A stretch of 32,122 bases of DNA from Ruminococcus sp. (GTDB lineage: Bacteria > Bacillota > Clostridia > Oscillospirales > Acutalibacteraceae), in contig JAFTYK010000034.1 of assembly GCA_017464765.1 (NCBI GenBank), positions 1-32,122 of the forward strand. The letters run 5' to 3'. The notes beneath the pieces are model-generated. The model did not search any database and was not told the origin of the DNA. It saw nothing but the letters and a program-made list of their open reading frames with translations. Of this stretch, positions 2,476-20,920 are shown in pieces. The number at the start of each line of letters is the position of its first letter. Positions within the stretch are counted from its first letter, which is position 1. The translations under genes and the position numbers were made by a program.

Positions 2476-3390
2476 ATGAAGGGATTAAATAAACTATTTT
2501 CTTTTATCTTAGCCTTTGTTATGATTAGCTGTTGTACGCTTTCTGCAAATGCATATATTATATACGGAGAGTATGGGGACGTTGACCGTGACTTAGATGT
2601 AGATATATTTGATGCAACTTATCTTCAAAGGTATTTAGCAGGCTTGGAAAGTGTAGTTGATGATGCTTACGAAGCATGTGATGTTGATGCAGATGGTAAT
2701 ATAAGTGTTATAGATGCCACGTTCATTCAAAGATATTTAGCACGAATGATTTCTGGTTTTCCTGCAGGTGGTGGGTATGAAGTTTATGATATTATTTATG
2801 ATATAATGGTTGATTGTGATTCAGGAAAAGCTATGGTTGGTATTCCTGTTGATTTTATTGTTTATGGTTTAGTTCAACCGGGTCCCGCAACGATTAAGTT
2901 GCTTGTTGATGATGTATGTGTTGCAGAGGATGTGCAGACAGGTAGTGATATTTTTGACCATCGTATCAGCTATACGTTTGAACAAGCCGGTACATACGAT
3001 GTTAAAGTGTGCCTTTATGATAAGATCGGAAAGAGTGAACAGATTTTACCGATAAAAGACTATGTAGTAGTTGAACAGCCTTTGGATAAAACAAAACCAA
3101 TTGTAACATCTGTTATAGCTAATACTTCGATAACATGGACACCGGAGTTTACAGCCAGGGCTGTGTTTGGAACAGCACCCTATGAGTATAAATTCGTATT
3201 AATAAATAATGGTGAAATTGTCCAAACTCAGGAGTTCTCCGAAGATAATACTTTCTTAGTAGAGGAATTACCTGAATACGCCAAAGCTATTATTCAGGTG
3301 ACAGTAAGAGATGCCAACGGCTACGAAGCAACTGATGATACAGTTTATATGATGTGGATTCCTCTTCCGGGATGTGCAAAACCTGAATAA
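2476..3390 (+). CDS. Secreted protein, N-terminal dockerin plus Ig-like domains
   Basis: A 304-aa exported protein with a signal peptide of about 26 aa ending SANA. Directly after it comes a dockerin type I module at about 33-93, with loops GDVDRDLDVDIFDATYLQ and CDVDADGNISVIDATFIQ, both with intact Asp ligands and each followed by QRYLA. Residues of about 100-200 and 205-300 look like two beta-sandwich (Ig or PKD-like) repeats: each contains a strand-rich pattern and phrases such as TFEQAGTYDVKVCLYD and AIIQVTVRDANGYEATDD. No catalytic domain is visible. An N-terminal dockerin is the reverse of the usual layout. The likely role is a binding or spacer subunit docked on a cohesin. The ribosome site AAAGGAGGAG is strong. 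Confidence 0.82.
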   Translation: MKGLNKLFSFILAFVMISCCTLSANAYIIYGEYGDVDRDLDVDIFDATYLQRYLAGLESVVDDAYEACDVDADGNISVIDATFIQRYLARMISGFPAGGGYEVYDIIYDIMVDCDSGKAMVGIPVDFIVYGLVQPGPATIKLLVDDVCVAEDVQTGSDIFDHRISYTFEQAGTYDVKVCLYDKIGKSEQILPIKDYVVVEQPLDKTKPIVTSVIANTSITWTPEFTARAVFGTAPYEYKFVLINNGEIVQTQEFSEDNTFLVEELPEYAKAIIQVTVRDANGYEATDDTVYMMWIPLPGCAKPE

Positions 3391-3452: not shown

Positions 3453-3800
3453 TTATGTAACTAGTCCGAATGATACTGAAATCGCGTTGTTTATTTCTTT
3501 CATAGAATTTTCAGATACCGTACCCATTTTCTCCTTGAGTCGCTTTTTGTCGATTGTGCGAACTTGTTCTAGTAGAACAACGCTGTCTTTACTTAGTCCG
3601 CTTGTCTGTGCGCCTATTGCGATGTGGGTTGGTAGCTTTGCTTTTGTTTGTTGGCTTGTGATAGCGGCTGCGATGACGGTAGGGGAAAAGCGGTTGCCAA
3701 CGTCGTTCTGCACAATGAGTACAGGTCTTATTCCGCCTTGTTCCGAACCAATCACAGGGCTTAAGTCCGCGTAGTAAATATCTCCTCGCTTAATGTTCAA
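3453..3800 (-). CDS. mazF: MazF/PemK-type endoribonuclease toxin (NdoA-like)
   Basis: A 115-aa protein matching the length and layout of the Bacillus NdoA/MazF toxin, a sequence-specific mRNA interferase. It starts [20 protein letters not shown], then [12 protein letters not shown] and AAAITSQ. Arg25 and Thr48, the residues known to be needed for catalysis in B. subtilis MazF, are both present at the same positions. The start is TTG at 3800, with GGAGTG about 10 nt ahead. In most Firmicutes a small MazE antitoxin gene lies directly upstream; here only about 100 nt separate it from the neighbouring transporter and no antitoxin reading frame fits. Either the antitoxin is elsewhere or the gene is solitary. 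Confidence 0.93.
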
Positions 3801-6073: not shown

Positions 6074-8632
6074 TTATTTCTTCTTTTGATATGGAGTGTC
6101 GCCAAGCGGAAGCTTAGTTCGTAGCTTTTTGTCGCGGTTATAGTATGCTAAAGCTACCGCAGGTGGGGTAGGAATGGAGCATATTTCTCCAATACCTTTA
6201 GCTCCGAACGCGAGTGTTGTGTCAGGCTTTGAGATAATAAGCGGAGTGACGTTTGGTGTCATATCAGCTCTGAAAAGACCGAGTGTGCCTAGTTTCTTCT
6301 TCGGCTTTCCGTTTTCTAGCGGAAAATCTTCGGTGAGTGAATAGCCTAAACTCATCACAACACCGCCCTCAATCTGACCTTCAATAGCTTTCGGGTTGAC
6401 CGCAGTTCCTACGTCGTGAGCGGCGACTACTTCTTTGATTTTGTTTTCATCGTCGAGTATTACAAGATGCGTCGCGTAGCTGTAAGCAATATGACTTATC
6501 GGATTTTCTTTTTCACTTCCGATTTTATCCGTTACACCAGTGTATTCTCCTAAATACTCTTTTCCGTCTAAATTTTCAAGTGAGCCAAACTTTTCTAAAT
6601 CAGTTTTCAAAAGCTTTGCAGCTCGTACTGCCGCTTCACCCGTAAATAAAGTCTGTCTAGAAGCTGTAGTATTTCCTGCGTTTGGAGCAACCGTAGTATC
6701 AGGAGTGCAGTACTTGATTTTGTTTAGTGGTAGTGAACTTGCTTGAGCGATCATCTGCACCTGAACGGTACCCATGCCCTGACCGATACACGCCGCACTT
6801 GAGTGAATATAAGCGATGCCGTTCTTTACTTTGATTTTACATCTTCCCGTATCAGGAACGCCCACCCCCAGACCGCTGTTTTTAATAGCACACGCTATAC
6901 CGCAGTCAGGATTTTTTTCGTAAATTTCACGAACAGCATCTAGGGTTTCGATAAGTGCAGTTGATTTGTCCGCAATCTGTCCGTTTGGGAGAACATCGCC
7001 TGGTTTTAGAGCGTTTATGTAACGAATCTCAAAAGGTGAGATGCCAACCATCTCAGCTAGCTGATTGAGGTTCTGCTCGGTAGCAAAACAGCTTTGTGTA
7101 ACGCCAAAGCCTCTGAAAGCTCCTGCAGGTGGGTTGTTTGTGTAAACCGCCTGCCCAAAAATATCTATAACCTGATAGTTGTACGGACCCGCCGCGTGAG
7201 TGCATGCTCTTTGAAGAACAGGACCACCTAAAGATGCGTATGCTCCTGTGTCAGAGATGATTTTTGCTTTCATAGCGGTGAGTTTTCCGAATTCATCGCA
7301 AGCTGTTGTGAATTCCATCTCCATAGCGTGACGTTTCGGATGAACGAGCAGGCTTTCATCACGGCTTAGCTTTACTTTTACAGGCAAGCCTGTTTTTAAT
7401 GCTAAAATAGCCGCGTGGTGCTGAACGCTCATATCTTCCTTGCCGCCGAAACCACCGCCAACCATAGCCGCAGTAACTCTGACTTTTTCAAGCGGTAACC
7501 CTGTAGCTTCTGCACATTCTTTTTGTGTCTGATAAATTCCCTGATCACCGCTGATTATATGTACTCCGCCGTCTTCAGGAAAAGCAACAGCGCATTCAAC
7601 TTCCATGAATGCGTGGTCTGTGAAAGGCAGGCTGTAGTGCGTGGTTACTTTGTACTTGCTGTTTTTTATAACCTCGTCGGCGTTTCCTCTTACCAAATGT
7701 TCAGTTGATAGAATATTTCCGTTTTCGTGAACGAGGGGAGCGTTTTCTTTCAGCGCTTCTTGTGGGGAAAATACAGCAGGAAGTTCAACGTATTTGACCT
7801 TTATAGCTTTCTTTGCTTTTTCAACACATTCACGTGTTTTGCCTGCGACTAGTGCAATAGCGTCGCCTAAATAATGGGTGATACCTCCAACAGGAATCAG
7901 CACGTCCCAGTCTTTTTTTAGGTGACCAATTTTTTGATTACCGTCTAAATCGTCAGCGGTCACTATCGCTACGACGCCTTCAATTTTCAAAGCCTCAGTT
8001 GTATCTATAGACAGAATCCTCGCTCTTGGATATTCACTTCTAAGAGCCGAGCCGTGTATCATATTATCAAAGTAAACATCATCAGCAAAAATCGCTGTGC
8101 CGAGAGTTTTGTCTTTAGCGTCAACTCTGTGCATGCTCTCGCCTAAAAGTCCCGTGAAGTCAGTTTCAGGGACATCGCTATTTTCTCTTATGATTTTAGC
8201 GGATAGCATAATCGCGTCAATGATTTTCTTGTATCCTGTACAGCGACATATATTGTTTTTGATAGCTTTTTTAACATCATCGCGAGTAGGGGCAGAATTT
8301 TTGTCAATCAGCGCTTTTGCACATAGCACCATACCCGGGATACAGTAACCGCACTGAACCGCACCTGCGCTTGAAAAAGCGTAGCTGTACACTCTTTTTT
8401 CGTAGTCACTTAAGCCTTCGGTAGTGAGAATAGTTTTTCCGTCGAATTTACTGACAGAAAAAATACACGCTCTCTCTACTTTTCCGTCAACAAGCACGCT
8501 ACAGGTACCACACGCTCCCTGAGAACATCCGTCTTTAACAGATGTAAGACGCAATTCGTCGCGTAAAAATCTCATCAAAGTTACGTTTTCTGTTACGGTA
8601 TATATTTCTCCGTTGACTTTGAAAGTTGCCAT
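6074..8632 (-). CDS. xdhD: Selenium-dependent xanthine dehydrogenase-like molybdenum hydroxylase (fused 2Fe-2S and Moco domains)
   Basis: An 852-aa xanthine oxidase-family enzyme. Residues 1-80 are a plant-ferredoxin-type 2Fe-2S domain (Cys36, 41, 44, 56), and 81-150 the second 2Fe-2S domain (Cys94, 97, 129, 131). From about 165 come the molybdopterin domains, with VGGGFGGKED (391-400), GAFRGFG (504-510) and GAKGIGE (810-816). Glu399, Arg475 and Glu816 line up with bovine XDH Glu802, Arg880 and Glu1261, which fits a purine substrate. There is no FAD domain. Length and fusion match the family called selenium-dependent xanthine dehydrogenase (E. coli XdhD-like), known next to ygfJ, yqeB, yqeC and selD. 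It starts 1 nt after ygfJ, with AGAGG ahead. Purine hydroxylation (xanthine/urate chemistry) is an inference; the active-site match supports it. Confidence 0.9.
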   Translation of the reverse strand: MATFKVNGEIYTVTENVTLMRFLRDELRLTSVKDGCSQGACGTCSVLVDGKVERACIFSVSKFDGKTILTTEGLSDYEKRVYSYAFSSAGAVQCGYCIPGMVLCAKALIDKNSAPTRDDVKKAIKNNICRCTGYKKIIDAIMLSAKIIRENSDVPETDFTGLLGESMHRVDAKDKTLGTAIFADDVYFDNMIHGSALRSEYPRARILSIDTTEALKIEGVVAIVTADDLDGNQKIGHLKKDWDVLIPVGGITHYLGDAIALVAGKTRECVEKAKKAIKVKYVELPAVFSPQEALKENAPLVHENGNILSTEHLVRGNADEVIKNSKYKVTTHYSLPFTDHAFMEVECAVAFPEDGGVHIISGDQGIYQTQKECAEATGLPLEKVRVTAAMVGGGFGGKEDMSVQHHAAILALKTGLPVKVKLSRDESLLVHPKRHAMEMEFTTACDEFGKLTAMKAKIISDTGAYASLGGPVLQRACTHAAGPYNYQVIDIFGQAVYTNNPPAGAFRGFGVTQSCFATEQNLNQLAEMVGISPFEIRYINALKPGDVLPNGQIADKSTALIETLDAVREIYEKNPDCGIACAIKNSGLGVGVPDTGRCKIKVKNGIAYIHSSAACIGQGMGTVQVQMIAQASSLPLNKIKYCTPDTTVAPNAGNTTASRQTLFTGEAAVRAAKLLKTDLEKFGSLENLDGKEYLGEYTGVTDKIGSEKENPISHIAYSYATHLVILDDENKIKEVVAAHDVGTAVNPKAIEGQIEGGVVMSLGYSLTEDFPLENGKPKKKLGTLGLFRADMTPNVTPLIISKPDTTLAFGAKGIGEICSIPTPPAVALAYYNRDKKLRTKLPLGDTPYQKKK

Positions 8633-8633
8633 T

Positions 8634-9221
8634 TTATACCTCTGTTTCAGATAAAAACTCTAAATCTTCTTTAGTGTCGATATCTTTAAGTTCTTTTTTA
8701 CATTCTATGTTGAAAATCTTAAGTTTATCTTCGTGATATTTTATAACAGCACTTCCGCCGTTATCGTTTTCTAAAGCGAAAAGCTCATCGTAAAAAGCTT
8801 TCGGAAAAATGCACGGATTTCCTTTCTTCCCGTTATATCCCATACTTACTATGAAGTCGCTGTTCTTACTGAAAAATTCGAGCATTTTCACAACGCTTTC
8901 TTGTTTTAGAAGTGGTTGGTCGCTGACCATAAACAAAGTAGCGTCACAGTCGCTTGTATAGTTTAAACCAAGCTTTATTGTATGGCTGATGCCGTATTCG
9001 GGATGATTGTTTTCAATGTAATGAAAACCGCGGTTTTCGGTTTTTTCTTTTACGTTTTCAAATCTCGAAACTACAGCAACTTTTGAGAAACTGTTTTTAG
9101 GGATACAGGAAATCGCCCTGTCAATAAGGCTTACACCATCTATTTTTATATCAAGTTTGTTGTTTCCGTAGCGCTCGCTTTTACCCGATGCTAAAATTAC
9201 ACAACCTATTTTGTGTTTCAT
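8634..9221 (-). CDS. ygfJ: Molybdenum cofactor nucleotidyltransferase, MocA/YgfJ family
   Basis: A 195-aa cytosolic protein of the MobA-like NTP transferase fold. The N-terminus GCVILASGKSERYGNNKL is the nucleotide-binding loop, followed by MVSDQPLL (98-105, Asp101 a likely metal ligand) and KKGNPCIFP. The MocA/YgfJ family attaches CMP to molybdopterin, forming the dinucleotide cofactor of xanthine dehydrogenase-type enzymes. It is first in an operon with xdhD, 1 nt apart, which points to XdhD as client. The ATG at 9221 was chosen over GTG at 9230 because AGGAA lies 9 nt before the ATG and would overlap the GTG too closely. The assignment is by family plus context. Confidence 0.88.
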   Translation of the reverse strand: MKHKIGCVILASGKSERYGNNKLDIKIDGVSLIDRAISCIPKNSFSKVAVVSRFENVKEKTENRGFHYIENNHPEYGISHTIKLGLNYTSDCDATLFMVSDQPLLKQESVVKMLEFFSKNSDFIVSMGYNGKKGNPCIFPKAFYDELFALENDNGGSAVIKYHEDKLKIFNIECKKELKDIDTKEDLEFLSETEV

Positions 9222-9337
9222 AATACACACTTCCTATGAAAATATTTTATCAAAAGCCACAATGCGTTGTCAATAAAACGAGTAGCCTAAACGAGTAAAA
9301 TATACGGAATTTTTTAAGAAATTATATAAAAAACCTC

Positions 9338-9366
9338 TTTAAAACAGCTTTGATATATGTTATAAT
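9338..9366 (+). promoter_or_regulatory. Probable sigma-A promoter of the xdhABC-yqeCB-selD operon
   Basis: -35-like TTTAAA (9338-9343), a 17-bp spacer and a perfect -10 TATAAT (9361-9366), about 50 nt before xdhA. The 187-nt divergent gap to ygfJ should hold regulation of both arms. I saw no clear operator or riboswitch in it. Confidence 0.55.
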
Positions 9367-9417
9367 GACTAAAGTATAAGGAGAATTATACACTTTTACA
9401 TATAGGAGGCGAGATTT

Positions 9418-11700
9418 ATGGTAGTTGGTAAGAGCGTGAAAAGACTCGACGCTTTTGATAAAGTCACAGGCAGAACTAAATACACCGATGATTTATGTGA
9501 CAAAAGCGCGTATGTTGCTAAAATACTTCACTCTACTATTGCTCACGGTAAGGTGATTTCAATAGACATATCAGAAGCTTTGAAAGTTGACGGTGTAGTT
9601 AAAATCGTTACTTGTTTTGATGTGCCGAAAAATTACTTCCCGACAGCAGGTCACCCGTGGTCTACCGATGAATCTCATCAAGACGTAGCTGACAGACTTC
9701 TGCTTACTGATACAGTCCGTTTCTACGGCGATGATGTGGCGGCTGTTGTAGCTGAAGATGAAGTTTCAGCCTCTAAAGCTTTAAAAGCTATTAGAGTAGA
9801 GTACGAGGAATATCCTTTCGTTTTAGATGTGCAAGAGGCGATGAAAGACGACGCGCCTCAGATTCATATGGCTTTCAAAAATAATATTTTAAATCACTCA
9901 AGCCAGAGCGTCGGAAATTACGAAGAAGCCATAAAAGAAGAAGGCCTCATTAAGTTTGATAACTGGTACGATACTCCAACTGTTCAGCACTGTCATATTG
10001 AAAATCATATTTGTTACGCAAGTGAAGAAAACGGGAGGATCACCGTTGTAACCTCAACCCAGATTCCTCATATAGTCAGAAGAGTTGTCGGTCAGGCGCT
10101 CGGTGTTGACTGGGGTAAAATCAGGGTTATCAAGCCTTATATCGGCGGTGGTTTTGGTAATAAGCAAGACGTACTATATGAACCGCTTTGTGCTTATCTT
10201 TCAACCGTTGTTGGTGGCAGACTTGTAAAGCTTGACAGTAGTCGCGAAGAAACCTTTGTTTCACAGCGAGTGCGCCACGCTATCCGTTCTCATATTATCA
10301 CGTATACAAGACCCGATGGCACGTTTGTTGCCCGAAAGCTCGAAATGTTTTCGAACCAGGGAGCCTATGCATCTCATGGTCACTCAATAGCCGCTAAAGG
10401 TATGGGGTGTTTCAAACAGCTTTATCCATGTCCTAACGTTGAAGCAGAATGCTATACTGTTTTCACTAACCGCCCTGTAGCTGGAGCTATGCGTGGCTAC
10501 GGTATTCCTCAGGCTATGTTTGCCGTTGAAAGTCAGATTGACGATATTGCCAATGGTTTAGGTATGACTCCTCTTGAGATAAGAAAAAAGAATCTTATGC
10601 CAGTTGGATATAAGGATGATTTTTCAAAGAATGTCAATTATTTTGACAGCTTTAACCAGTGTATCGAAAAAGGAAAGAAATACATTGACTACGAAAGAAA
10701 ACTGAAAGATTATAAAAACCAGAACGGAGATATAAGAAAAGGCATCGGTATGGCTGTATTCTGGTATAACACAGCCGTGTGGCCGATAAGTCTTGAATCT
10801 TCATCGAGCCGTATGGTGCTGAATCAGGACGGCTCAATAAGTTTACAGCTCGGTGAAACCGAAATCGGTCAGGGAGCTGATACAGCCTTTGCTCAGATGG
10901 CAGCAGATGCAGTAGGTATAACGCTCGATAAGGTCAACGTTATTTCCTGTCAGGATACTGACATCACGCCTTTTGGCACAGGAGCTTACGCTTCACGTCA
11001 GACCTATGTTGGTGGCTTAACTATTAAGCAGACAGGCGAACTTCTCAAATCCCGTATTCTTGACTACGCTCAAAAGTTGAGCGGTATACATTCTGGTGAA
11101 CTCGATATCGTTGATAATAACATCATCGCAAAAGCTGATGGAAAATTTGTTATGACGGTTGGGGACCTTGCTACAACTGCTTTGTACAGTATGGAAGACA
11201 GCAGGCATATTACAGCCGAAACCACATTCCAGATTAAATCCAACGCTTATTCATTCGGTTGTTGTTTTGCTGATGTCGAAGTTGATATCCGTGCGTGCAA
11301 GGTTAAGATTTTAGATATAATCAACGTTCACGATTGCGGAAAGCTCATTAACCCTGCTTTAGCTGAAGCTCAGGTTCACGGTGGAATGTCGATGGGTATC
11401 GGCTACGCTCTTTCTGAGCAGGAACTTTTCGACAGCGCAACAGGCAGAACACTTAATAACAACCTGCTTGATTATAAGCTTTCAACCTTTATGGACCACC
11501 CTCATCTTGAGGCGCAGTTTGTTGAGAATGCTGAGCCTACTTCTGCTTACGGAACAAAGGCTTTGGGAGAACCGCCTGCTTGTCCGGTCGCTCCAGCTAT
11601 ACGAAACGCTGTGCTTAATGCTACAGGAGTAGCTATTAATAGAATCCCAATGACACCGCACGTTCTTTTCGAAGAATTCACTAAAAACGGACTAATCTAA
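9418..11700 (+). CDS. xdhA: Xanthine dehydrogenase-type hydroxylase, molybdopterin-binding subunit
   Basis: A 760-aa large subunit of a three-subunit molybdenum hydroxylase, with sizes (760, 293, 163 aa) close to E. coli XdhA, XdhB and XdhC. The N-terminal alpha/beta hammerhead (RLDAFDKVTGRTKYTDDL) is followed by IGGGFGNKQDV (242-252), GAMRGYG (356-362), TEIGQGADTAFAQMAAD and GTKALGEPP (712-720). Glu718 matches bovine Glu1261. Where XdhD and bovine XDH have Glu802, this protein has Gln250, and a Lys or similar residue replaces Arg880. So xanthine is less certain as substrate; another purine, nicotinate or an aldehyde-like heterocycle could fit. AGGAGG precedes the ATG; xdhB follows 12 nt on. 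Substrate is not readable from sequence. Confidence 0.88.
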   Translation: MVVGKSVKRLDAFDKVTGRTKYTDDLCDKSAYVAKILHSTIAHGKVISIDISEALKVDGVVKIVTCFDVPKNYFPTAGHPWSTDESHQDVADRLLLTDTVRFYGDDVAAVVAEDEVSASKALKAIRVEYEEYPFVLDVQEAMKDDAPQIHMAFKNNILNHSSQSVGNYEEAIKEEGLIKFDNWYDTPTVQHCHIENHICYASEENGRITVVTSTQIPHIVRRVVGQALGVDWGKIRVIKPYIGGGFGNKQDVLYEPLCAYLSTVVGGRLVKLDSSREETFVSQRVRHAIRSHIITYTRPDGTFVARKLEMFSNQGAYASHGHSIAAKGMGCFKQLYPCPNVEAECYTVFTNRPVAGAMRGYGIPQAMFAVESQIDDIANGLGMTPLEIRKKNLMPVGYKDDFSKNVNYFDSFNQCIEKGKKYIDYERKLKDYKNQNGDIRKGIGMAVFWYNTAVWPISLESSSSRMVLNQDGSISLQLGETEIGQGADTAFAQMAADAVGITLDKVNVISCQDTDITPFGTGAYASRQTYVGGLTIKQTGELLKSRILDYAQKLSGIHSGELDIVDNNIIAKADGKFVMTVGDLATTALYSMEDSRHITAETTFQIKSNAYSFGCCFADVEVDIRACKVKILDIINVHDCGKLINPALAEAQVHGGMSMGIGYALSEQELFDSATGRTLNNNLLDYKLSTFMDHPHLEAQFVENAEPTSAYGTKALGEPPACPVAPAIRNAVLNATGVAINRIPMTPHVLFEEFTKNGLI

Positions 11701-11712
11701 GGAGGCGAGACT

Positions 11713-12594
11713 ATGTATGACATCAAAGCTTTATACGAAGCTTATAGCGTAGAAGAAGCTATAAATCTGCGTCTTTTACATCCTGATGCACAGATTCTCG
11801 CAGGTGGTAGTGACGTTTTAGTTCAAATTCGCGAGGGTAAACGCGCAGGAAAAGAACTCATCAGTATTTATACGATTGATGAAATAAGAGGGATTTCTCT
11901 CGATGAGACTGAGAGTATCCGCATTGGTTCTCTGACTAGCTTTTCTCATATCACTAAAAACGAGATTGTGCAGAAATACATCAACGTGCTTGGTGAAGCT
12001 GTCGATATGGTCGGCTCACCACAGATTCGTAATATTGGAACTATCGGCGGCAACACCTGCAACGGTGTAACGTCTGCTGATTCAGCGTCAACACTTTTTT
12101 CACTCGATGCTTTAGTAGAGCTTACCGGAAAAAGTGGCAAGCGTGTTATCCCGATTTCTGATTTCTATATCAAAGCAGGTACTGTAGATATTAAGCCTGA
12201 CGAAATCCAGACGGCTATTATTATTCCTAAAGAGAAATATTCAGGATATCAGGGCCACTATATAAAATACGCTATGCGTAACGCTCTTGATATTACCACC
12301 ACAGGTTGCTCTGTGAATGTTAAACTTAGCGAAGACAAGAAAACTTTTCTTGATGTTCGAATTGCTTACGGCGTAGCGGGACCTATCCCAATGAGAGCGA
12401 AGAATGCCGAAAGTTTTATAGTAGGCAAAGCTGTTAATGACGAAAACTGTAAGGAATTTTCTAAAGAGGTGTTAAACGATATCAACCCTCGAGATAGCTG
12501 GCGAGCTTCAAAAGCTCTTCGTCAGCATATAGCAGTTGAGCTTGCTTACAGAGCGATTAAAGAGTGTGTAAAGCTTTCTGGAGGTGAGATGTAA
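11713..12594 (+). CDS. xdhB: Molybdenum hydroxylase FAD-binding subunit
   Basis: A 293-aa flavoprotein that carries electrons between the 2Fe-2S clusters and the final acceptor. The FAD pyrophosphate motif AGGSDVLV is at 30-37 and the second motif IRNIGTIGGNTCNG at 105-118, followed by DSASTLFSLDA. The C-terminal CO dehydrogenase flavoprotein domain ends the protein. The length equals the family norm. AAGGAGG lies before the ATG and the stop overlaps the xdhC start by 1 nt (TAATG), so the two are translationally coupled. As XdhD lacks its own FAD domain, this subunit might also serve it; that is only an idea. Confidence 0.92.
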   Translation: MYDIKALYEAYSVEEAINLRLLHPDAQILAGGSDVLVQIREGKRAGKELISIYTIDEIRGISLDETESIRIGSLTSFSHITKNEIVQKYINVLGEAVDMVGSPQIRNIGTIGGNTCNGVTSADSASTLFSLDALVELTGKSGKRVIPISDFYIKAGTVDIKPDEIQTAIIIPKEKYSGYQGHYIKYAMRNALDITTTGCSVNVKLSEDKKTFLDVRIAYGVAGPIPMRAKNAESFIVGKAVNDENCKEFSKEVLNDINPRDSWRASKALRQHIAVELAYRAIKECVKLSGGEM

Positions 12595-13085
12595 TGGCAC
12601 AGTACAAGTTAGTGAAATTCACCTTGAATGGTAAAGAGGTTGAGAAAATGGTCGATGTTCGTGCATCTCTGACCGATATGCTACGTAACGATTACCGAAT
12701 GACTTCTGTGAAAAAAGGCTGTGAGGTGGGTGAGTGCGGTGCTTGTAACGTACTGATTGACGGCGAGTGCTTCAACTCTTGCATTTACCTCGCTGTTTGG
12801 GCAGAAGGTAAGAATATCCGTACACTCGAAGGACTTATGAGCGAAGATGGCGAGCTTTCAGATATTCAGCAGGCGTTCATCGATGAAGCCGCTGTTCAGT
12901 GCGGATTCTGTACGCCGGGTGTTATTATGTCTGCTGTTGAGATATTGGAAAGTGGACGCGACTATACCGACGATGAGCTAAGAAAACTTCTCTCGGGTCA
13001 TCTGTGCCGTTGTACAGGTTACGAGAATATCCTAAGAGCTGTTCGAAAAACTCTTGATAGAAGATTAGGTAAAGTAAATGTCTAA
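12594..13085 (+). CDS. xdhC: Molybdenum hydroxylase 2Fe-2S subunit
   Basis: A 163-aa iron-sulfur subunit that relays electrons from the molybdenum site to FAD. The first cluster ligands are Cys43, 48, 51 and 63 (GCEVGECGACNVLIDGEC and following), and the second Cys103, 106, 138 and 140 (CGFCTPG and CRCTGYE). It is normal in size for the small subunit (about 155-165 aa). It overlaps xdhB by 1 nt and the ModE-like gene by 8 nt, so it lies mid-operon. All eight cluster cysteines are present. Confidence 0.95.
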   Translation: MAQYKLVKFTLNGKEVEKMVDVRASLTDMLRNDYRMTSVKKGCEVGECGACNVLIDGECFNSCIYLAVWAEGKNIRTLEGLMSEDGELSDIQQAFIDEAAVQCGFCTPGVIMSAVEILESGRDYTDDELRKLLSGHLCRCTGYENILRAVRKTLDRRLGKVNV

Positions 13086-13458
13086 GAAAAATGATAAAGT
13101 TGCACTGCACCCGAAAGTGACTTTACAGCTTTTTACTGATGAGAAAAGCTTTGGTCCGGGGGTAGCATTGTTACTTGAAAAAATAAAAGAAAAGGATTCA
13201 ATCCGCAAGGCTGCTTTTGAAATCGGAATGTCGTACTCGAAAGCGTGGACGATTATAAAACGCGCCGAAAAAAACCTCGGTTTTGAACTGCTTCTTTCAA
13301 AAACAGGAGGAGCTGACGGAGGAGGAGCAACGCTCACAAGCAACGGTGAACGAGTTTTAAAAGCTTTTCGTGATTGCGAGAAAGAGCTTTTTGAGTTTAC
13401 TGACAGTAAATTTTCGGAGTATTTCTCTTGGATTAAAAATTCTGAATTAGAAAAATAA
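13078..13458 (+). CDS. ModE N-terminal-type winged-helix regulator (no TOBE domain)
   Basis: A 126-aa protein matching the DNA-binding half of ModE, the molybdate-responsive regulator. The winged helix spans about 25-105, with helix-turn-helix DSIRKAAFEIGMSYSKAW and the ModE-type wing GGADGGGATLTSNGERVL. The molybdate-binding TOBE domains of full ModE (about 260 aa) are absent, so it cannot sense molybdate in the known way. Such short ModE-like proteins are common beside molybdenum hydroxylase genes. It overlaps xdhC by 8 nt. A palindrome and promoter start 8 nt after its stop, so it may control yqeC-yqeB-selD or the divergent operons. The target is inferred. Confidence 0.85.
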   Translation: MSKKNDKVALHPKVTLQLFTDEKSFGPGVALLLEKIKEKDSIRKAAFEIGMSYSKAWTIIKRAEKNLGFELLLSKTGGADGGGATLTSNGERVLKAFRDCEKELFEFTDSKFSEYFSWIKNSELEK

Positions 13459-13465
13459 CTTATAG

Positions 13466-13517
13466 TATGTCAGTGTGCCTTGGTACATTGACATATTCTT
13501 TGAAACCGTTATATAAA
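13466..13517 (+). promoter_or_regulatory. Palindrome overlapping an internal promoter before yqeC
   Basis: TATGTCAGTGT (13466-13476) and ACATTGACATA (13485-13495) form an 11-bp inverted repeat with one G-T pair and an 8-nt centre. Its right arm contains a perfect -35 TTGACA (13488-13493). A TATAAA or TATATA -10 lies at 13510-13517 (spacer 16-18). Initiation would fall about 13523-13525, only a few bases before the yqeC ATG at 13530. The repeat could be an operator or a weak hairpin; it has no good T tract. Confidence 0.5.
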
Positions 13518-13529
13518 ATACTCAACCAT

Positions 13530-14213
13530 ATGAAATTATCTGAAATTCTGAAAATCAAAAAAGGAATAACCTGCGTTATCGGGGGAGGTGGAAAGACAAC
13601 CCTTATCCACACTTTAGCCGATGAGCTTAAAGAAAAAGGAAAAGTTGTTATTACTACCACTACACACATTTTGAAAAGCGAAAGGTTTCATAATGTCATA
13701 ACAGATGGAAAATGCGACTTGTCATATCTTGGAGAGATAATAAGTCAGCACAACTGTATATGCCTTGGTTCTCGATTTGAAGGGGATAAACTTTCAGCTC
13801 CTTTGATTGAACTTTATGATTTGTGCAGTATATGTGACTATGTATTAGTCGAAGCTGACGGCAGTAAACATCTTCCGTTGAAATCTCATCTTGCTTATGA
13901 ACCTATAATTCCTGATAAGAATAATAAAACTATTCTCGTTCTTGGAATAGACGCTCTGGATTGTAGGGTGAAAGACGTAGTCCACAGGTACGAAAAGTTT
14001 TGTGAGCTTGTAGGCTGCGATGAAAATGATACCTTAATTTCAGATATGATATCTGCTCTCTTAAGAGCCGAGAATTTACACGATACGGTTGTTATCAACA
14101 AATGCGATACTGATGAGCTTAAAAAATCAGCTCAGTTTATAAGCTCTAAGATCGATGAAGAATGTATAATTTCATCATTACTCAAAGGAGAATGGTATGT
14201 TAGCAGTAATTAA
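13530..14213 (+). CDS. yqeC: Selenium cofactor biosynthesis protein YqeC
   Basis: A 227-aa cytosolic protein of the YqeC family, which co-occurs with selenium-dependent molybdenum hydroxylases. It begins MKLSEILKIKKGITCVIGGG with the P-loop-like GGGGKTTLIHTLAD at 18-31, then VVITTTTHI, YVLVEADGSKHLPLK and DTVVINKCDTDELKK, resembling a small GTPase or ATPase. Its biochemical step is not established, but it is thought to help form or insert the labile selenium cofactor. The reading frame is open back to ATG 13467. The ATG at 13530 fits family N-termini, but neither start has a ribosome site, and a promoter just ahead suggests a leaderless mRNA. It overlaps yqeB by 17 nt. Confidence 0.88.
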   Translation: MKLSEILKIKKGITCVIGGGGKTTLIHTLADELKEKGKVVITTTTHILKSERFHNVITDGKCDLSYLGEIISQHNCICLGSRFEGDKLSAPLIELYDLCSICDYVLVEADGSKHLPLKSHLAYEPIIPDKNNKTILVLGIDALDCRVKDVVHRYEKFCELVGCDENDTLISDMISALLRAENLHDTVVINKCDTDELKKSAQFISSKIDEECIISSLLKGEWYVSSN

Positions 14214-14985
14214 AGGTGCAGGCGACATCGCTTCAGGTATAGCACTTCGTTTGCATAGAGCAAAATTTGATATTATAATGACGGAAATCAGTTCTCCGAC
14301 AGCTATAAGGCGAACCGTTAGTTTTAGTGAAGCTGTGTACAAAAATGAAGCGGTAGTAGAAGACGTTAAAGCGGTTTTAGCCCAAGATGTAGATAAAATA
14401 CCTGAAATTCTGAGTAGCGGTAATATCGCTGTCATCGTTGACGAAAAAGCATCTTGTGTAAAGGAGCTTAAGCCCGATTTCGTAATCGACGCTATTTTAG
14501 CTAAGAAAAATATTGGTACTTCTATCGATGACGCTAAAGTTGTTATCGGTGTCGGTCCTGGATTTACAGCTAAGGTGGACTGCCACGCCGTAGTTGAGAC
14601 TAAACGCGGACACTATTTAGGCAGGGTTTACTACGAGGGTAGCGCAAGCGAGAACACAGGAGTGCCCGGCGATATTGCTGGCTATACTACTGAGCGTATT
14701 ATCCGTTCACCCGAGTATGGTGTGTTCAATCCTATTTTCGAGATAGGGGACAAGGTCGAGAAAGGCGAGGTTGTCGCCTGCGTTGACAGTACTCCGATTG
14801 TTGCTGAAATTTCAGGAATTTTGCGCGGTATTCTGCCGAAAGGTACTATGGTCTGCACTCAGATGAAGTCGGGCGATATCGACCCGAGATGTGAAAAAGA
14901 GCATTGTTACACTGTTTCTGATAAGGCGCTTTCTGTTGGCGGTGGAGTGCTTGAAGCGTGTCTTAGTTTGTATTCGGAGAAATGA
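14197..14985 (+). CDS. yqeB: Selenium-dependent molybdenum cofactor maturation protein YqeB
   Basis: A 262-aa member of the YqeB family, a marker of selenium-dependent molybdenum hydroxylase loci. The N-terminal half is Rossmann-like, with IKGAGDIASGIALRLH (5-20), followed by VIVDEKA and a region containing VIGVGPGFTAKVDCHAVVET. The C-terminus (about 188-211, EKGEVVACVDSTPIVAEIS) looks like a biotinyl/lipoyl-type barrel. Two cysteine-containing stretches (VDCHAVVE and DPRCEKEHC) might handle selenium, but this is a guess. AAGGAG lies 6 nt before the ATG. It overlaps yqeC and ends 1 nt before the selD start codon, so the three are coupled. Confidence 0.9.
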   Translation: MLAVIKGAGDIASGIALRLHRAKFDIIMTEISSPTAIRRTVSFSEAVYKNEAVVEDVKAVLAQDVDKIPEILSSGNIAVIVDEKASCVKELKPDFVIDAILAKKNIGTSIDDAKVVIGVGPGFTAKVDCHAVVETKRGHYLGRVYYEGSASENTGVPGDIAGYTTERIIRSPEYGVFNPIFEIGDKVEKGEVVACVDSTPIVAEISGILRGILPKGTMVCTQMKSGDIDPRCEKEHCYTVSDKALSVGGGVLEACLSLYSEK

Positions 14986-14986
14986 T

Positions 14987-16024
14987 ATGGCTGATAATAT
15001 TAAACTTACGAAGCTTTCTAAATGTTCAGGCTGCGGAGCTAAAGTGGGAGCAGGAGTTCTGTCCCAGCTTTTGTCTGACTTGAAAGTCAACCATGATGAA
15101 AATCTGCTCGTCGGTTTTGATAAAAGCGACGACGCGAGTGTATATAAAATAACTGATGATTTGTGCATCGTCCAGACGGTGGATTTCTTTCCGCCTATTG
15201 CTGATGACCCGTATATTTTCGGTCAGATTGCGGCAGCAAATTCACTTTCGGATATCTACGCTATGGGTGCTGTGCCTAAAACAGCGCTAAACGTTATGTG
15301 CGTTCCTAAGTCAATGAGCGACGCTGATGTCCACGCTATACTGAAAGGCGGATACGATAAAGTTTTTGAAGCGGGAGCTGTAATCTCAGGCGGTCACAGT
15401 ATTTACGATGATGAGCCGAAATACGGAATGTGTGTCACAGGATTTGCTCACCCTGACAAAATTCTCACCAATAGCGGTGCAAAAGCAGGGGACAAGCTAA
15501 TCTACACAAAACCACTCGGCATCGGCATCATAACAACTGCCCAAAAAGCTGAAATTGCATCACAAGAGAGCGTCGAAAAAGCTATAGAAGCTATGACTTT
15601 TCTGAATAAATCCGCTCGCGACTGTATGGTGAAATACGACACCCACGCGTGTACTGATGTAACTGGTTTTTCGCTTCTTGGCCATAGCCTTGAAATGGCT
15701 CAGGGTTCTGACACACAGATTAAGTTTTTCACAGATAATATAGACGTAATAGACGGCACTTACGAATTTGCGAAAATGGGAATTCTTCCCGAGGGAATGT
15801 ATCGTAACCGAAAGTTTGCAGAAGAGTTTGTAAATGTTGGTGACGTCGAGCTTTTTGTTCAGGACGTGCTGTTTGACCCGCAGACATCGGGCGGGCTTTT
15901 AATCAGCGTAAGTTCCTGCGATGCCGAAAAATTACTCGAAGAACTGAAAACTTGCACAATCTCGTCTAATATAATCGGCGAGGTTGAAGAATATGAAGGT
16001 AAAGAAAGAATATTTCTAATTTAG
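14987..16024 (+). CDS. selD: Selenide, water dikinase (selenophosphate synthetase)
   Basis: SelD makes selenophosphate from selenide and ATP, the general selenium donor. The 345-aa protein has the N-terminal active loop KCSGCGAKVGAG, where Cys16 and Lys19 align with the essential Cys17 and Lys20 of E. coli SelD. The residue is ordinary Cys (no in-frame TGA, so not selenocysteine). Then come DDASVY, TVDFFPPIADDPY (about 64-76), SGGHSIYD and DPQTSGGLL, the ATP/Mg motifs of the PurM-like fold. The ATG has GGAG 7 nt ahead; an in-frame start far upstream lies inside yqeB and was rejected. With no selA, selB or tRNA-Sec in view, it is an orphan SelD serving the hydroxylases. Confidence 0.96.
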   Translation: MADNIKLTKLSKCSGCGAKVGAGVLSQLLSDLKVNHDENLLVGFDKSDDASVYKITDDLCIVQTVDFFPPIADDPYIFGQIAAANSLSDIYAMGAVPKTALNVMCVPKSMSDADVHAILKGGYDKVFEAGAVISGGHSIYDDEPKYGMCVTGFAHPDKILTNSGAKAGDKLIYTKPLGIGIITTAQKAEIASQESVEKAIEAMTFLNKSARDCMVKYDTHACTDVTGFSLLGHSLEMAQGSDTQIKFFTDNIDVIDGTYEFAKMGILPEGMYRNRKFAEEFVNVGDVELFVQDVLFDPQTSGGLLISVSSCDAEKLLEELKTCTISSNIIGEVEEYEGKERIFLI

Positions 16025-16073
16025 AAATAAACCTCTTCAGGTTTTTGATAAAATAATTCTATAAGAGAACTAT

Positions 16074-17255
16074 ATGAAGAAAATATACTTTGATAACGCG
16101 GCGACTTCTTTTCCGAAAGCACCCGCGCTATCTGAAACTGTTTCAAATTTCATAGATAACACTTGTGTCAATATCAATCGTGGTGTATACTCTCTCTCAA
16201 GTGAGCTTAGTGATGTGGTTGTTGATACACGAATGAGGCTAGCTCAACTTTTTGACTGTGATGAGAATCCGCTTAAATTCTGCAAAAGAATTATATTCAC
16301 CTCAGGAGTAACTGCATCTCTCAATATGTTTTTGCGTGGACTGCTTTCTGAGAACGATCACGTTGTAGTGGGTGCTTTGGAGCATCACGCGGTTATGAGA
16401 ACTCTCTACGCTTTGCAAAAAGAAAAAGGCATCACTTTCGATATTGCAAAGTGTGATGAAAACGGTGTTGTTAGTTCTGATAGCGTGATTGCGTGTTTAA
16501 AATCAAACACCAAAGCGGTTGTGATTAACCACGCGTCCAACGTTTTCGGTGCAGTTAGTGACATCACTTCAATTGGTGAGTTGTGCAGAGAAAAGGGGAT
16601 ATACTTTGCTGTCGATACTGCCCAGACTGCAGGAGTTATCGATATATCAATGAGGAAATCTAACATCGACTTTCTTGCTTTTTCGGGACACAAGGGACTT
16701 CTCTCTTTACAGGGAATTGGCGGTTTTGCTATTTCTAAGAAGCTGTCGCATGAACTCAAACCTACCATTACAGGTGGCACGGGAAGTGCGTCGCATTTTT
16801 ATACCCAACCAGACACTCTTCCTGATAAATTTGAGAGCGGAACGCTGAATTTGTGCGGAATTATTGCCCTTAATCATTCACTTAGGTACATAAGTGAAAT
16901 CGGTATTGAGAATATTAGAATTAGAGAGCTTGCACTTCGAAAGTATTTCGTTGACTCTTTGAAAGACGAAAAAGATATAAAGATTTACTGTGCCGATGAA
17001 AGTGTTGATACAACCGCGGTTGTGTCTTTAACATTCAAAACGTGTGATAACGCTTATGTTGCGTCAACACTTGAGCGTGACTTTGATGTGATGACTCGCT
17101 GTGGGCTTCATTGTTCGCCACTTGCTCATTCTTCAATGGGTACGTATCCTAGTGGTACAGTGCGTTTTTCTTTCTCATATTTCAATACCGAAAGTGAAAT
17201 AGATTTTTGCGTAAACGCAATAAAGAAAATTCTAAAGGAGAATTATAATGCCTAA
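16074..17255 (+). CDS. Class V aminotransferase, cysteine desulfurase/selenocysteine lyase-like
   Basis: A 393-aa PLP enzyme of the cysteine desulfurase family (EF2568-like clade found beside orphan SelD). The PLP lysine is Lys207 in AFSGHKGL; the active-site Cys347 lies in RCGLHCSPLAHSSMGT, the SufS/CsdB-type short loop. His104/105 (EHHAVM) and Asp181 (AVDTAQT) are also in place. It could release selenium from selenocysteine or sulfur from cysteine and feed SelD. It is 49 nt after selD, with a small weak hairpin (16029-16044) between. It overlaps mnmA by 8 nt, which would suit a dedicated sulfur donor for tRNA thiolation as well. Substrate is not decided by sequence. Confidence 0.9.
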   Translation: MKKIYFDNAATSFPKAPALSETVSNFIDNTCVNINRGVYSLSSELSDVVVDTRMRLAQLFDCDENPLKFCKRIIFTSGVTASLNMFLRGLLSENDHVVVGALEHHAVMRTLYALQKEKGITFDIAKCDENGVVSSDSVIACLKSNTKAVVINHASNVFGAVSDITSIGELCREKGIYFAVDTAQTAGVIDISMRKSNIDFLAFSGHKGLLSLQGIGGFAISKKLSHELKPTITGGTGSASHFYTQPDTLPDKFESGTLNLCGIIALNHSLRYISEIGIENIRIRELALRKYFVDSLKDEKDIKIYCADESVDTTAVVSLTFKTCDNAYVASTLERDFDVMTRCGLHCSPLAHSSMGTYPSGTVRFSFSYFNTESEIDFCVNAIKKILKENYNA

Positions 17256-18312
17256 AGCTATTATAGCGATGAGCGGTGGTGTTGATAGTTCAGTTGCAGC
17301 TTTTTTAATGAAAGAGCAGGGCTATGACATCATCGGTATCACGCTTAAACTTCACGGCGAAAAGAATATAATTGAAGAACAGTCCTGCTGTACAACACAG
17401 GATATATTAGACGCTAAAGCTGTGTGTGACAGGCTTTCTATAGAACATAGAGTGGTTGATTTGGAAAGCAACTTCAAAGAGAATGTCATCGACCGTTTTA
17501 TCGACTCCTATGTCTGTGGCGGTACACCTAACCCTTGTGTCGATTGTAATCGCTATATCAAGTTTTCGAAACTTCTCGATATAGCTAAGGAAGAGGGCTA
17601 TGACTACGTTGTAACAGGTCACTACGCAAGAGTTGGGTATGACGAAAACAGCGGACGATATTTACTTAAGAAAGGACTCGACGAGAGTAAAGACCAGAGC
17701 TACGTGCTGTATTCTTTGTCACAGGACGCTTTAGCTCACCTGAAGCTTCCTTTGGGCGAGCTTACTAAAGACAGAGTGCGTGAAATCGCTGAAGAAAACT
17801 GCTTTATTAATGCTAACAAAAAGGACAGTCAGGATATCTGCTTTGTGCCTGACGGCAAGTACGCTGATTTCATAACACAATACACAGGAAAGAGTTTTCC
17901 AGATGATGATTTTGTTGATTTAAAAGGTCAGGTGCTAGGCACTCATAAAGGCATTATCCGTTACACTATCGGTCAGCGAAAGGGACTAAATCTCTCGCTA
18001 CCTCAGTCGATGTATGTCTGCAAAAAAGATATTGATACAAATACCGTGACTTTGTGTTTAGATCACGAGCTGTTTTCTGATACACTTATAGCTGAAGATG
18101 TTAATTTTATTTCTATAAAAGAACTAACAGAACCAATCAGGGTTAAAGCAAAAATACGCTACAAACATAATGAATCAAGTGCTACGCTCTATCCTTGTGA
18201 AAGCGGGAGAATCAAGCTTGTTTTCGATTCTCCTCAGCGAGCCATAACAAAAGGCCAGGCAGTTGTAATGTATGATGGCAACAGCGTGGTAGGTGGCGCA
18301 ACAATAGTATAA
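17248..18312 (+). CDS. mnmA: tRNA-specific 2-thiouridylase MnmA
   Basis: MnmA puts the sulfur on U34 of tRNA-Lys, -Glu and -Gln, using ATP and a persulfide from a cysteine desulfurase. The 354-aa protein begins with the ATP pyrophosphatase P-loop AMSGGVDSSVAAF (7-19). The two catalytic cysteines are Cys97 (GGTPNPCVDCNRYIKF) and Cys198 (KKDSQDICFVPDG). YTIGQRKGL marks the central domain, and a C-terminal beta-barrel follows. AAAGGAG precedes an ATG that overlaps the desulfurase stop by 8 nt, so the two are translationally coupled. It is last in the long operon, closed by a strong terminator. Confidence 0.97.
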   Translation: MPKAIIAMSGGVDSSVAAFLMKEQGYDIIGITLKLHGEKNIIEEQSCCTTQDILDAKAVCDRLSIEHRVVDLESNFKENVIDRFIDSYVCGGTPNPCVDCNRYIKFSKLLDIAKEEGYDYVVTGHYARVGYDENSGRYLLKKGLDESKDQSYVLYSLSQDALAHLKLPLGELTKDRVREIAEENCFINANKKDSQDICFVPDGKYADFITQYTGKSFPDDDFVDLKGQVLGTHKGIIRYTIGQRKGLNLSLPQSMYVCKKDIDTNTVTLCLDHELFSDTLIAEDVNFISIKELTEPIRVKAKIRYKHNESSATLYPCESGRIKLVFDSPQRAITKGQAVVMYDGNSVVGGATIV

Positions 18313-20237: not shown

Positions 20238-20920
20238 TTATTCAAAGAACTTTCTAAGCTTTAGTCTGTCTTTGAATTCGAAGTGTTTTTCAAATATCTT
20301 TGAAAAAGCGCCGATTGTGAATCCGTTTAGTAGCGCACAGACAATGGTGCCTATCTTTACCCCCTCAAAATTGAACCATCCAAAGAATGCAAAGCTCATA
20401 ATTACAGCGATAACGCAGCTTGTACAATCGTAAATAGTTTTGACTTTGTTTATATTGGCATTAAGCAGTGCAGAAATCTCTTTCACGAAAAGCTCGTATA
20501 CCTCGGGGGAAATATAAGTATGAAACAGAAGAGATACTCCTACTGCACAACCGATAAGACCACAAATATATAATAATATTCGGCATATAAGCAAATCGCT
20601 TGGGATATATGATACCCACATTATCATAAAGTCTAAGATGAATCCGTAGAGTACTGCAGTAACGAATGGAATAAATAATGTAGCTTAAATCTTCTTAGCA
20701 CTAGTATCATCACAACCAACAGTATGGCTTGCAAAGTGTATTCTGCCATACCGAACGAAAAGAAAGGAAGATATTGTGATACTTTTAAATGTAATATGTA
20801 TGCAGGTGCTACAATCATCGATACTCCAAAATCTGCTTTTTCCATAAGTGCTGCACTCAGTGCAAGAAAAATCAGACCTATTATGTACGCAAGTTCTGAG
20901 TAAAAAACTCTTTTTTTCAT
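20238..20920 (-). pseudogene. YczE/YitT-like membrane protein broken by a frameshift
   Basis: Two adjacent minus-strand frames (20633-20920, 95 aa, and 20238-20627, 129 aa) join into one protein of about 227 aa when the frame is shifted once near 20668-20671. The first reads RRFKLHYLF and then leaves frame. In the second frame the sequence before its first ATG goes on as PFVTAVLYGFILDFMIMW, which is the conserved loop and helix of YczE/DUF6198-type integral membrane proteins (about 215 aa, 5-6 helices). A single lost base explains it. The start ATG at 20920 has AAGGGG ahead. It is either a recent pseudogene or a sequencing error. The function of intact homologues is poorly known (possibly transport or membrane assembly). 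Confidence 0.78.

What the first reader, a model, noticed from the sequence alone, without database searches (positions are those of the whole stretch)
6074..18312. Complete selenium-dependent molybdenum hydroxylase locus with an orphan SelD
ygfJ, xdhD, xdhABC, yqeC, yqeB, selD and a desulfurase-like gene sit together, with no selA, selB, tRNA-Sec or mnmH in view. This is the known but poorly understood third use of selenium, a labile Se ligand on a molybdenum enzyme. The chemistry of YqeB and YqeC is unresolved, and here all suspected parts lie within 12 kb, which makes a compact model. The family link is established knowledge; the pathway order is inference.
Basis: partly seen in the sequence, partly recalled or inferred. 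Interest (0 to 1): 0.78.

Follow-up and report, generated by a model that had tools for sequence, protein, structure and literature searches.

The report
Selenium cofactor locus for molybdenum hydroxylases
This is a compact gene cluster of a known but poorly understood kind that most likely puts a selenium atom on the molybdenum of purine-type enzymes, and close relatives that carry a similar enzyme without the selenium genes make it a useful comparison for finding out which genes do the selenium step.

Summary
The locus is real and is the known 'Se-cofactor' (SDMH) trait: xdhD, a mocA/ygfJ-like gene, xdhABC, a ModE-like regulator, yqeC, yqeB, selD, a TIGR01977 desulfurase/lyase and mnmA. SelD looks orphan: the own assembly is only 66.85% complete, but among 148 genomes (own, 89 same genus, 58 same order) selD, yqeB and yqeC pass their cut-offs in exactly the same 14; selA is in 1 (another family) and mnmH in 0. 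selB was not searched. Added here: (1) XdhD is no safe Se marker: 11 same-genus genomes carry a TIGR03311 'selenium-dependent' XdhD with no selD, yqeB or yqeC hit; they form one clade with the same active-site residues. (2) The Moco chaperone domain XdhC_C is in 9 of 9 Se-type and 10 of 11 Se-free XdhD genomes of the genus, so SelD/YqeB/YqeC look like an addition to XdhC, not a replacement. (3) YqeB is fused to a MocA-like domain in two MAGs and has no invariant cysteine in 23 sequences. Novelty: new member of a known kind. No selenium was measured.

The parts
6074..8632 (-). XdhD: fused [2Fe-2S] + Mo subunit, TIGR03311 'selenium-dependent xanthine dehydrogenase', outside clade b; E399/R475/F509 match bovine XO purine-site residues
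   Evidence: 1328 bits; tree; active-site columns
8634..9221 (-). MocA/YgfJ-like NTP transferase, probable molybdopterin cytidylyltransferase
   Evidence: TIGR03310 155.5 bits, below cut-off 186.45; Pfam NTP_transf_3
9222..9417 (.). divergent intergenic region; promoter-like sites 9273-9244 (-) and 9338-9366 (+)
   Evidence: consensus matches only
9418..11700 (+). XdhA, Mo-binding subunit of a second hydroxylase
   Evidence: NF043082 1239.6 bits
11713..12594 (+). XdhB, FAD subunit
   Evidence: NF043083 419.8 bits
12594..13085 (+). XdhC, [2Fe-2S] subunit (not the XdhC Moco chaperone)
   Evidence: NF043084 258 bits
13078..13458 (+). ModE-type winged-helix regulator
   Evidence: TIGR00637, 60.2 bits, cut-off 98.5; HTH_1
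13467..14213 (+). YqeC, P-loop NTPase; relatives suggest the true start at 13530
   Evidence: TIGR03172 154.9 bits; weak CobW/HypB/UreG match
14197..14985 (+). YqeB, possibly Rossmann-like + barrel-sandwich, inferred to act on the molybdenum cofactor
   Evidence: TIGR03309 370.6 bits
14987..16024 (+). SelD selenophosphate synthetase, Cys at the catalytic position (SGCGAK)
   Evidence: TIGR00476 392.6 bits; G142 has TGA at the matching codon
16074..17255 (+). TIGR01977 desulfurase / selenocysteine lyase-like protein
   Evidence: TIGR01977 443.4 bits; SclA model 377, cut-off 525
17248..18312 (+). MnmA tRNA 2-thiouridine synthase; in the cluster only in the window's own (type 1) lineage among the loci read
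   Evidence: NF001138 427.1 bits
18323..18351 (.). terminator-like hairpin, 13 pairs

Best explanation
The locus is a Se-cofactor cassette. Steps, with status. (1) The TIGR01977 PLP enzyme frees selenium from selenocysteine (family-level inference; the E. faecalis candidate SclA prefers Sec). (2) SelD makes selenophosphate (family function). (3) The MocA-like protein makes the cytosine dinucleotide form of Moco, the form identified in an SDMH of E. barkeri (literature). (4) XdhC, encoded elsewhere in the genome, holds the maturing Moco (shown for R. capsulatus XdhC; only presence shown here). (5) YqeB works on that Moco pool beside MocA and XdhC and swaps the equatorial oxo or sulfido ligand for selenium from selenophosphate. 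It probably binds substrates rather than carrying a per-selenide, because no cysteine is invariant among 23 YqeBs. (6) YqeC is a P-loop NTPase with an auxiliary or proofreading role. (7) The Mo=Se cofactor goes into XdhD and perhaps XdhABC. Steps 4 to 7 are inference. Subtraction inside one genus supports SelD+YqeB+YqeC as the selenium-specific set: hydroxylase genomes with and without them share XdhD, a MocA-like protein, XdhC (one miss) and mostly moaA.
For: selD, yqeB and yqeC over cut-off in the same 14 of 148 genomes; selA 1 of 148, mnmH 0 of 148. Genus contrast: 9 genomes with Se genes + XdhD + XdhABC against 11 with XdhD but none of the three Se genes; 5 of the 11 are listed at 97% completeness or more. 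XdhC_C: 9 of 9, 10 of 11, and 0 of 9 chosen genus genomes without XdhD or moaA hits. YqeB-MocA fusions L170 and L173. Best Cys column of YqeB 19 of 23. A desulfurase homologue (37-71% identical) lies in the cluster in 12 of 14 SelD genomes, the window included (G039's contig stops at selD; none in the stretches read of G142). XdhD is over cut-off in 12 of 14 SelD genomes, and all 20 other class-wide XdhD genomes have SelD. Literature: yqeB and selD needed for xanthine and urate growth in C. difficile (PMC11448449).
Against: No Se measurement exists for these proteins. Two SelD/YqeB/YqeC genomes (G101, G102) lack an XdhD over cut-off. XdhABC need not take Se; XdhA differs from XdhD at three substrate-site columns (Q/K/Y). 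C. difficile yqeC deletion had no obvious phenotype, which fits poorly with its perfect co-occurrence. The two fused YqeBs fall in one YqeB clade, so may be one event, and their MocA parts score below the TIGR03310 cut-off. XdhC could act only on sulfurated enzymes and YqeB on a separate pool. The 148 genomes are related, so 14 of 14 is not 14 independent events.
Confidence: 0.75

Rival explanations
1. SelD, the lyase and MnmA serve a tRNA selenium route (2-selenouridine) in which MnmA or another enzyme replaces MnmH; the hydroxylase genes are neighbours only.
For: mnmA is co-oriented and overlaps the desulfurase gene by 8 bases; the pair recurs in 5 of 5 type-1 loci whose contig continues that far.
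Against: mnmH 0 of 148. No MnmA hit in the type-2 or order-level SelD stretches read, while YqeB stays close to SelD there except in G142. selD tracks yqeB and yqeC in 14 of 14 genomes.
Confidence: 0.06
2. The enzymes are ordinary sulfido molybdenum hydroxylases; YqeB and YqeC detoxify or store selenium, with SelD as a sink for selenide.
For: A TIGR03311 enzyme exists in genomes without selD, yqeB or yqeC hits, with the same active-site residues. Haft & Self (parts 1-2 of 4 read) discuss a detoxification alternative.
Against: In the genus YqeB does not occur without a molybdenum hydroxylase (9 of 9). YqeB is fused to a MocA-like domain and, per Haft & Self, to XdhC-like domains. Se is known in purified SDMHs of two species (cited there), and selD and yqeB mutants grow poorly on xanthine and urate in C. 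difficile.
Confidence: 0.12
3. Only XdhD is selenium-dependent; XdhABC uses sulfur and is linked through shared Moco and ModE-type regulation.
For: XdhD has the purine-site residues and the TIGR03311 assignment; XdhA has Q, K and Y at the matching columns.
Against: XdhABC accompanies the Se genes in 9 of 9 genus members (split over contigs in G014), and no XdhA-type subunit is in the 11 loci without Se genes.
Confidence: 0.3
4. YqeB replaces XdhC as the Moco chaperone in Se organisms.
For: Haft & Self report YqeB fused to XdhC-like domains; both sit in hydroxylase loci.
Against: XdhC_C is present in all 14 SelD genomes of the 148 (9 genus, 5 order-level); the own copy is 328 aa and matches XdhC models, below their cut-offs.
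Confidence: 0.07

Closest known systems
Enterococcus faecalis EF2563-EF2570 orphan-SelD / SDMH locus (Haft & Self 2008)
   Same: orphan selD with yqeB, yqeC, a ygfJ relative, a TIGR01977 lyase and an EF2570-type hydroxylase (their Table 1)
   Different: EF has a TIGR03527 (YedF) gene beside selD and purine-type genes nearby; the window has xdhABC and a ModE-like gene in the cluster and mnmA at its end, and no YedF was seen in it
Clostridioides difficile SDMH genes (PMC11448449)
   Same: selD, yqeB, yqeC and several molybdenum hydroxylases
   Different: [quoted passage not shown] Sec proteins are also made (recalled). Here they are adjacent and selA was not found
XdhC-NifS4 Moco sulfuration (Rhodobacter capsulatus)
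   Same: desulfurase + Moco-binding chaperone + Mo hydroxylase logic; an XdhC is also encoded in the window's genome
   Different: the selenium route adds SelD, YqeB and YqeC; YqeB lacks an invariant Cys, while almost all XdhC-like proteins keep one (PMC2997495, passages)

Membership tests
Se-cofactor (SDMH) utilisation trait | SelD + YqeB + YqeC together | tested here: met
   all three over curated cut-offs
Se-cofactor (SDMH) utilisation trait | molybdenum hydroxylase in the same locus | tested here: met
   XdhD and XdhABC
Se-cofactor (SDMH) utilisation trait | labile non-Sec selenium in the purified enzyme | not testable with these tools
   needs protein and Se assay
Orphan SelD | no SelA and no MnmH in the genome | tested here: inconclusive
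   none found in the own genome (66.85% complete); 0 of 90 genus genomes (own included) for both: supported by relatives, not proved for this genome
Orphan SelD | no SelB, no SenB-type selenosugar synthase | not tested
   no search was run for either
Orphan SelD | no tRNA-Sec | tested here: inconclusive
   own best 44.5 bits, below the gathering score 47 (run with stricter filters); the hit in the window is tRNA-Ser(TGA) by ARAGORN
TIGR03311 Se-dependent XDH | score over curated cut-off | tested here: met
   1328 vs 830 bits
TIGR03311 Se-dependent XDH | outside clade b, which holds the 11 XdhDs of genomes without SelD | tested here: met
   trees
SclA selenocysteine lyase (NF040779) | score over curated cut-off | tested here: not met
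   377 vs 525 bits; called TIGR01977 only
MocA/YgfJ (TIGR03310) | score over curated cut-off | tested here: not met
   155.5 vs 186.45 bits; best family match, so called MocA-like

The most novel reading that the evidence does not exclude
Selenium or sulfur in the XdhD family is set by the maturation genes and not by the enzyme's active-site residues: clade b is a set of XdhDs that arose among enzymes of selenium users and now carries sulfur, and YqeB is a cysteine-independent converter that acts on XdhC/MocA-held Moco using selenophosphate. If so, adding or removing SelD-YqeB-YqeC should switch the ligand in an otherwise identical enzyme.
Probability: 0.4. Interest if true: 0.75.

Novelty: new member of a known kind. 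Interest (0 to 1): 0.5.

Why it matters
How labile selenium gets into molybdenum hydroxylases is the least understood use of selenium. This genus offers genomes with and without the selenium genes that share the same enzyme family, so selenium-specific genes can be separated from general molybdenum-cofactor genes. It also shows that the database label 'selenium-dependent xanthine dehydrogenase' is given to enzymes of organisms in which no selenophosphate synthetase was found.

Tried and rejected
XdhC-replacement idea: rejected, XdhC_C is present in all 14 SelD genomes. Reading Se dependence from active-site residues: failed. Of eleven columns looked at, eight are identical in all 48 other and 16 clade-b XdhDs, two (Q753, E816) differ only by a gap in one row, and one (Q660) has H in 2 of 48. 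Seven signature positions elsewhere were found (A341G, A503S, A582G, Q626T, A716S, A720G, P747I); none is known to matter. Using local linkage as the mark of a Se enzyme: failed. Lack of YqeB/YqeC/SelD near XdhD is not special to clade b: of the 17 non-b stretches only 5 show one, and of the 16 non-b named loci only 9. The clade-b argument rests on whole-genome absence in the 11. A claim of two whole-cassette acquisitions in the genus was dropped: XdhD of types 1 and 2 is not one clade (AU p 1.5e-50, quick tree of 51 of the 69 rows gathered), yet YqeB keeps them weakly together (73/81). PDB profile searches with YqeB and YqeC gave only generic weak matches; both outgroup rows were misread and that tree is not used; it was rebuilt. 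One search left out three outgroup rows. Of the 80 loci (L165-L182) were used and 62 were not: lower-identity relatives, and one partial match above 50% (L192).
Full report
OBSERVATION. The window is contig 15 (all 32,122 bases) of an assembly of 1,517,172 bases in 48 contigs, 66.85% complete. The MocA-like and ModE-like proteins score below their curated cut-offs; the names are by best similarity.

ORPHAN STATUS. In 148 genomes (own, 89 others of the genus, 58 of the same order) SelD passes its cut-off in 14: nine in the genus (G000, G014, G016, G025, G035, G039, G055, G057, G082) and five elsewhere (G101, G102, G123, G141, G142). The 126 of 148 genomes reported at E 1e-3 include 112 with matches below the cut-off only, which look like other AIRS-family proteins. 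In G057 SelD lies in two pieces on two contigs. YqeB and YqeC pass in the same 14 and in no other. SelA is found in G142 only and MnmH in none; each model passed its cut-off in one control genome, and E. coli is among the controls that rang. tRNA-Sec: 146 of 148 match at E 1e-3, mostly below the gathering score; 7 of 148 pass it, G142 with 67.8 bits and six with 47-53 bits but no selA; own best 44.5. G142's SelD has TGA where the window has the catalytic Cys. SelB and SenB were not searched.

NOT EVERY XdhD GENOME HAS THE SELENIUM GENES. TIGR03311 passes its cut-off in 23 of 148 genomes: 12 SelD genomes and 11 genus members with no SelD, YqeB or YqeC over cut-off (G004, G012, G017, G037, G041, G043, G049, G054, G062, G078, G083). 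Five of the 11 are listed at 97-100% completeness, the others at 73-87%. G101 and G102 are SelD genomes without XdhD over cut-off. In a class-wide draw of 391 genomes, 21 have XdhD (own included), and all 20 others have SelD. Three locus types occur in the genus. Type 1 (G000, G014, G016, G025, G039, G055) is the window's. Type 2 (G035, G057, G082) has a lyase-like gene, a ModE-like gene, yqeC, yqeB, selD, yedE (TIGR04112, 484 bits for G035), xdhD, a mocA-like gene and xdhABC. Type 3 (the 11) has a MocA-like NTP transferase, a second Mo subunit of about 714 aa, an Fe-S subunit, a FAD subunit and XdhD; no other convincing gene was shared by all 11 stretches, one of which is only 7.6 kb.

TREE. 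With 51 rows, the 11 form one clade (100/100), joined (100/100) by G236 and the second XdhD copies of G530 and G214, nested among XdhDs from SelD genomes. With 66 rows (quick method) Clostridium chromiireducens L169 and a Lachnoclostridium MAG L171 join them, giving clade b of 16, and Vagococcus L168, whose XdhD lies by yqeB and yqeC, is its sister (long branch). In the stretches read, none of the 16 clade-b loci has a YqeB, YqeC or SelD hit, and all 16 have a MocA-like hit. But such local absence is common outside clade b too (5 of 17 non-b stretches and 9 of 16 non-b named loci show one of the three), and L178, outside clade b, has a type-3-like neighbourhood. G236, G530 and G214 have SelD, so their clade-b enzymes could still receive Se. 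G530 and G214 each carry another XdhD copy on the selD-bearing contig, about 18 and 14 kb from selD. That clade b lost selenium is the simplest reading for the 11; the tree shows nesting, not chemistry. Of the 48 rows outside clade b, 32 come from genomes shown to have SelD; the genomes of the other 16 were not searched.

ACTIVE SITE. By alignment to solved structures, window XdhD has Q364, E399, R475, R507 and F509 where bovine xanthine oxidase has Q767, E802, R880, R912 and F914 (bovine numbers recalled). E816 matches a Glu of D. gigas aldehyde oxidoreductase there; its match to bovine E1261 is recalled, since the bovine alignment stops before it. These, and F395, G396, Q618 and Q753, are the same in 48 other and 16 clade-b XdhDs apart from gaps in one row. 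XdhA has Q, K and Y at the E399, R475 and F509 columns. So purine-type chemistry is expected for XdhD, less surely for XdhA, and the Se/S choice cannot be read from these residues.

MATURATION GENES. XdhC_C (PF13478), the Moco chaperone domain, was searched in 38 chosen genomes: 9 of 9 SelD genus genomes, 10 of 11 type-3 genomes (missing in G062, 85% complete), 5 of 5 SelD genomes of the order, 3 of 3 class genomes with a clade-b XdhD, 0 of 9 genus genomes without XdhD or moaA hits, and 1 of 1 for G081 (moaA, no XdhD). The last ten were picked by me from the 70 genus genomes without XdhD. The own copy is a 328-aa protein (L285; best model 282 bits, below its cut-off of 350). moaA: 21 of 148, in 10 of 11 type-3 and 9 of 14 SelD genomes, plus G081 and G097; not found in G000, G014, G025, G039, G057, four of which are 67-84% complete, while G039 is listed at 100%: unexplained. 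XdhC is thus common to both kinds of genome, and SelD+YqeB+YqeC is what the Se-type adds. The desulfurase was not searched outside the loci, so whether type-3 genomes have it is unknown.

YqeB AND YqeC. In 23 YqeBs, 47 columns are invariant, none a Cys; the best Cys column is 19 of 23. Single-sequence Pfam matches are weak and hint at an N-terminal Rossmann and a C-terminal barrel-sandwich domain, in line with the BCCP similarity noted in PMC11448449. L170 (Lachnospiraceae RUG532) and L173 (Mediterraneibacter) encode YqeB with a MocA-like domain in one reading frame (TIGR03309 342 and 329 bits; TIGR03310 120 and 112 bits, below its cut-off); both lie in one YqeB clade, together with an unfused one. 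Haft & Self report YqeB-XdhC fusions; I did not meet the MocA fusion in the parts seen of PMC11448449, PMC2276186 or PMC5029168 (literature searches), which is no proof that it is unreported. YqeC has invariant P-loop residues (G39, G42, K43) and E129, D131, G132, K139 and E145 among 12 invariant columns in 18 sequences, with a weak CobW/HypB/UreG match in 5 of 18.

PRIOR KNOWLEDGE. Haft & Self 2008 (PMC2276186, parts 1-2 of 4 read) proposed the trait from orphan SelD loci. PMC5029168 and PMC5322559 (passages) use SelD/YqeB/YqeC as its signature. PMC11448449 (abstract, Results part 1 of 2, Discussion, passages) reports selD and yqeB needed for xanthine/urate growth and yqeC without obvious phenotype. 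PMC2997495 (passages) gives the XdhC-NifS4-MobA model. PMC13188914 (passages) reports SclA as a candidate Sec-preferring lyase. The window adds a member, not a new kind.

VERDICT. Observation confirmed; interpretation partly supported; novelty: new member of a known kind. The main added value is the comparison inside one genus and the correction that TIGR03311 does not by itself mark selenium use.

Noticed in passing
window 20238-20627 and 20633-20920 (-): Two adjacent ORFs match the two halves of one family, DUF6198 (the second below its cut-off): a gene split by a frame change or an assembly error.
   Followed up: no
window 3453-3800 (-): MazF/PemK-type protein (PF02452, 128.5 bits); no partner was seen among ORFs of 90 aa or more, shorter ones were not looked for.
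   Followed up: no
window 1591-2217 and 2476-3390 (+): Small secreted-looking proteins with dockerin-like repeats; Pfam confirms Dockerin_1 in the second only. This hints at a cellulosome-type organism; the organism was not identified.
   Followed up: no
window 22728-24982 (-): A PqqD-like protein beside an OPT-family transporter.
   Followed up: no
L168, about 13893 and 14297: YqeB of Vagococcus acidifermentans lies in two reading frames.
   Followed up: no
G039 (loci L092, L093): A genome listed at 100% completeness with SelD, YqeB, YqeC, XdhD and XdhABC but no moaA over threshold.
   Followed up: no
L169, L253, L254, L255 against L171 and L178: Four clade-b XdhD loci carry MocA-like genes without the 714-aa-type Mo subunit; L171 (clade b) and L178 (outside clade b) have it.
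   Followed up: partly
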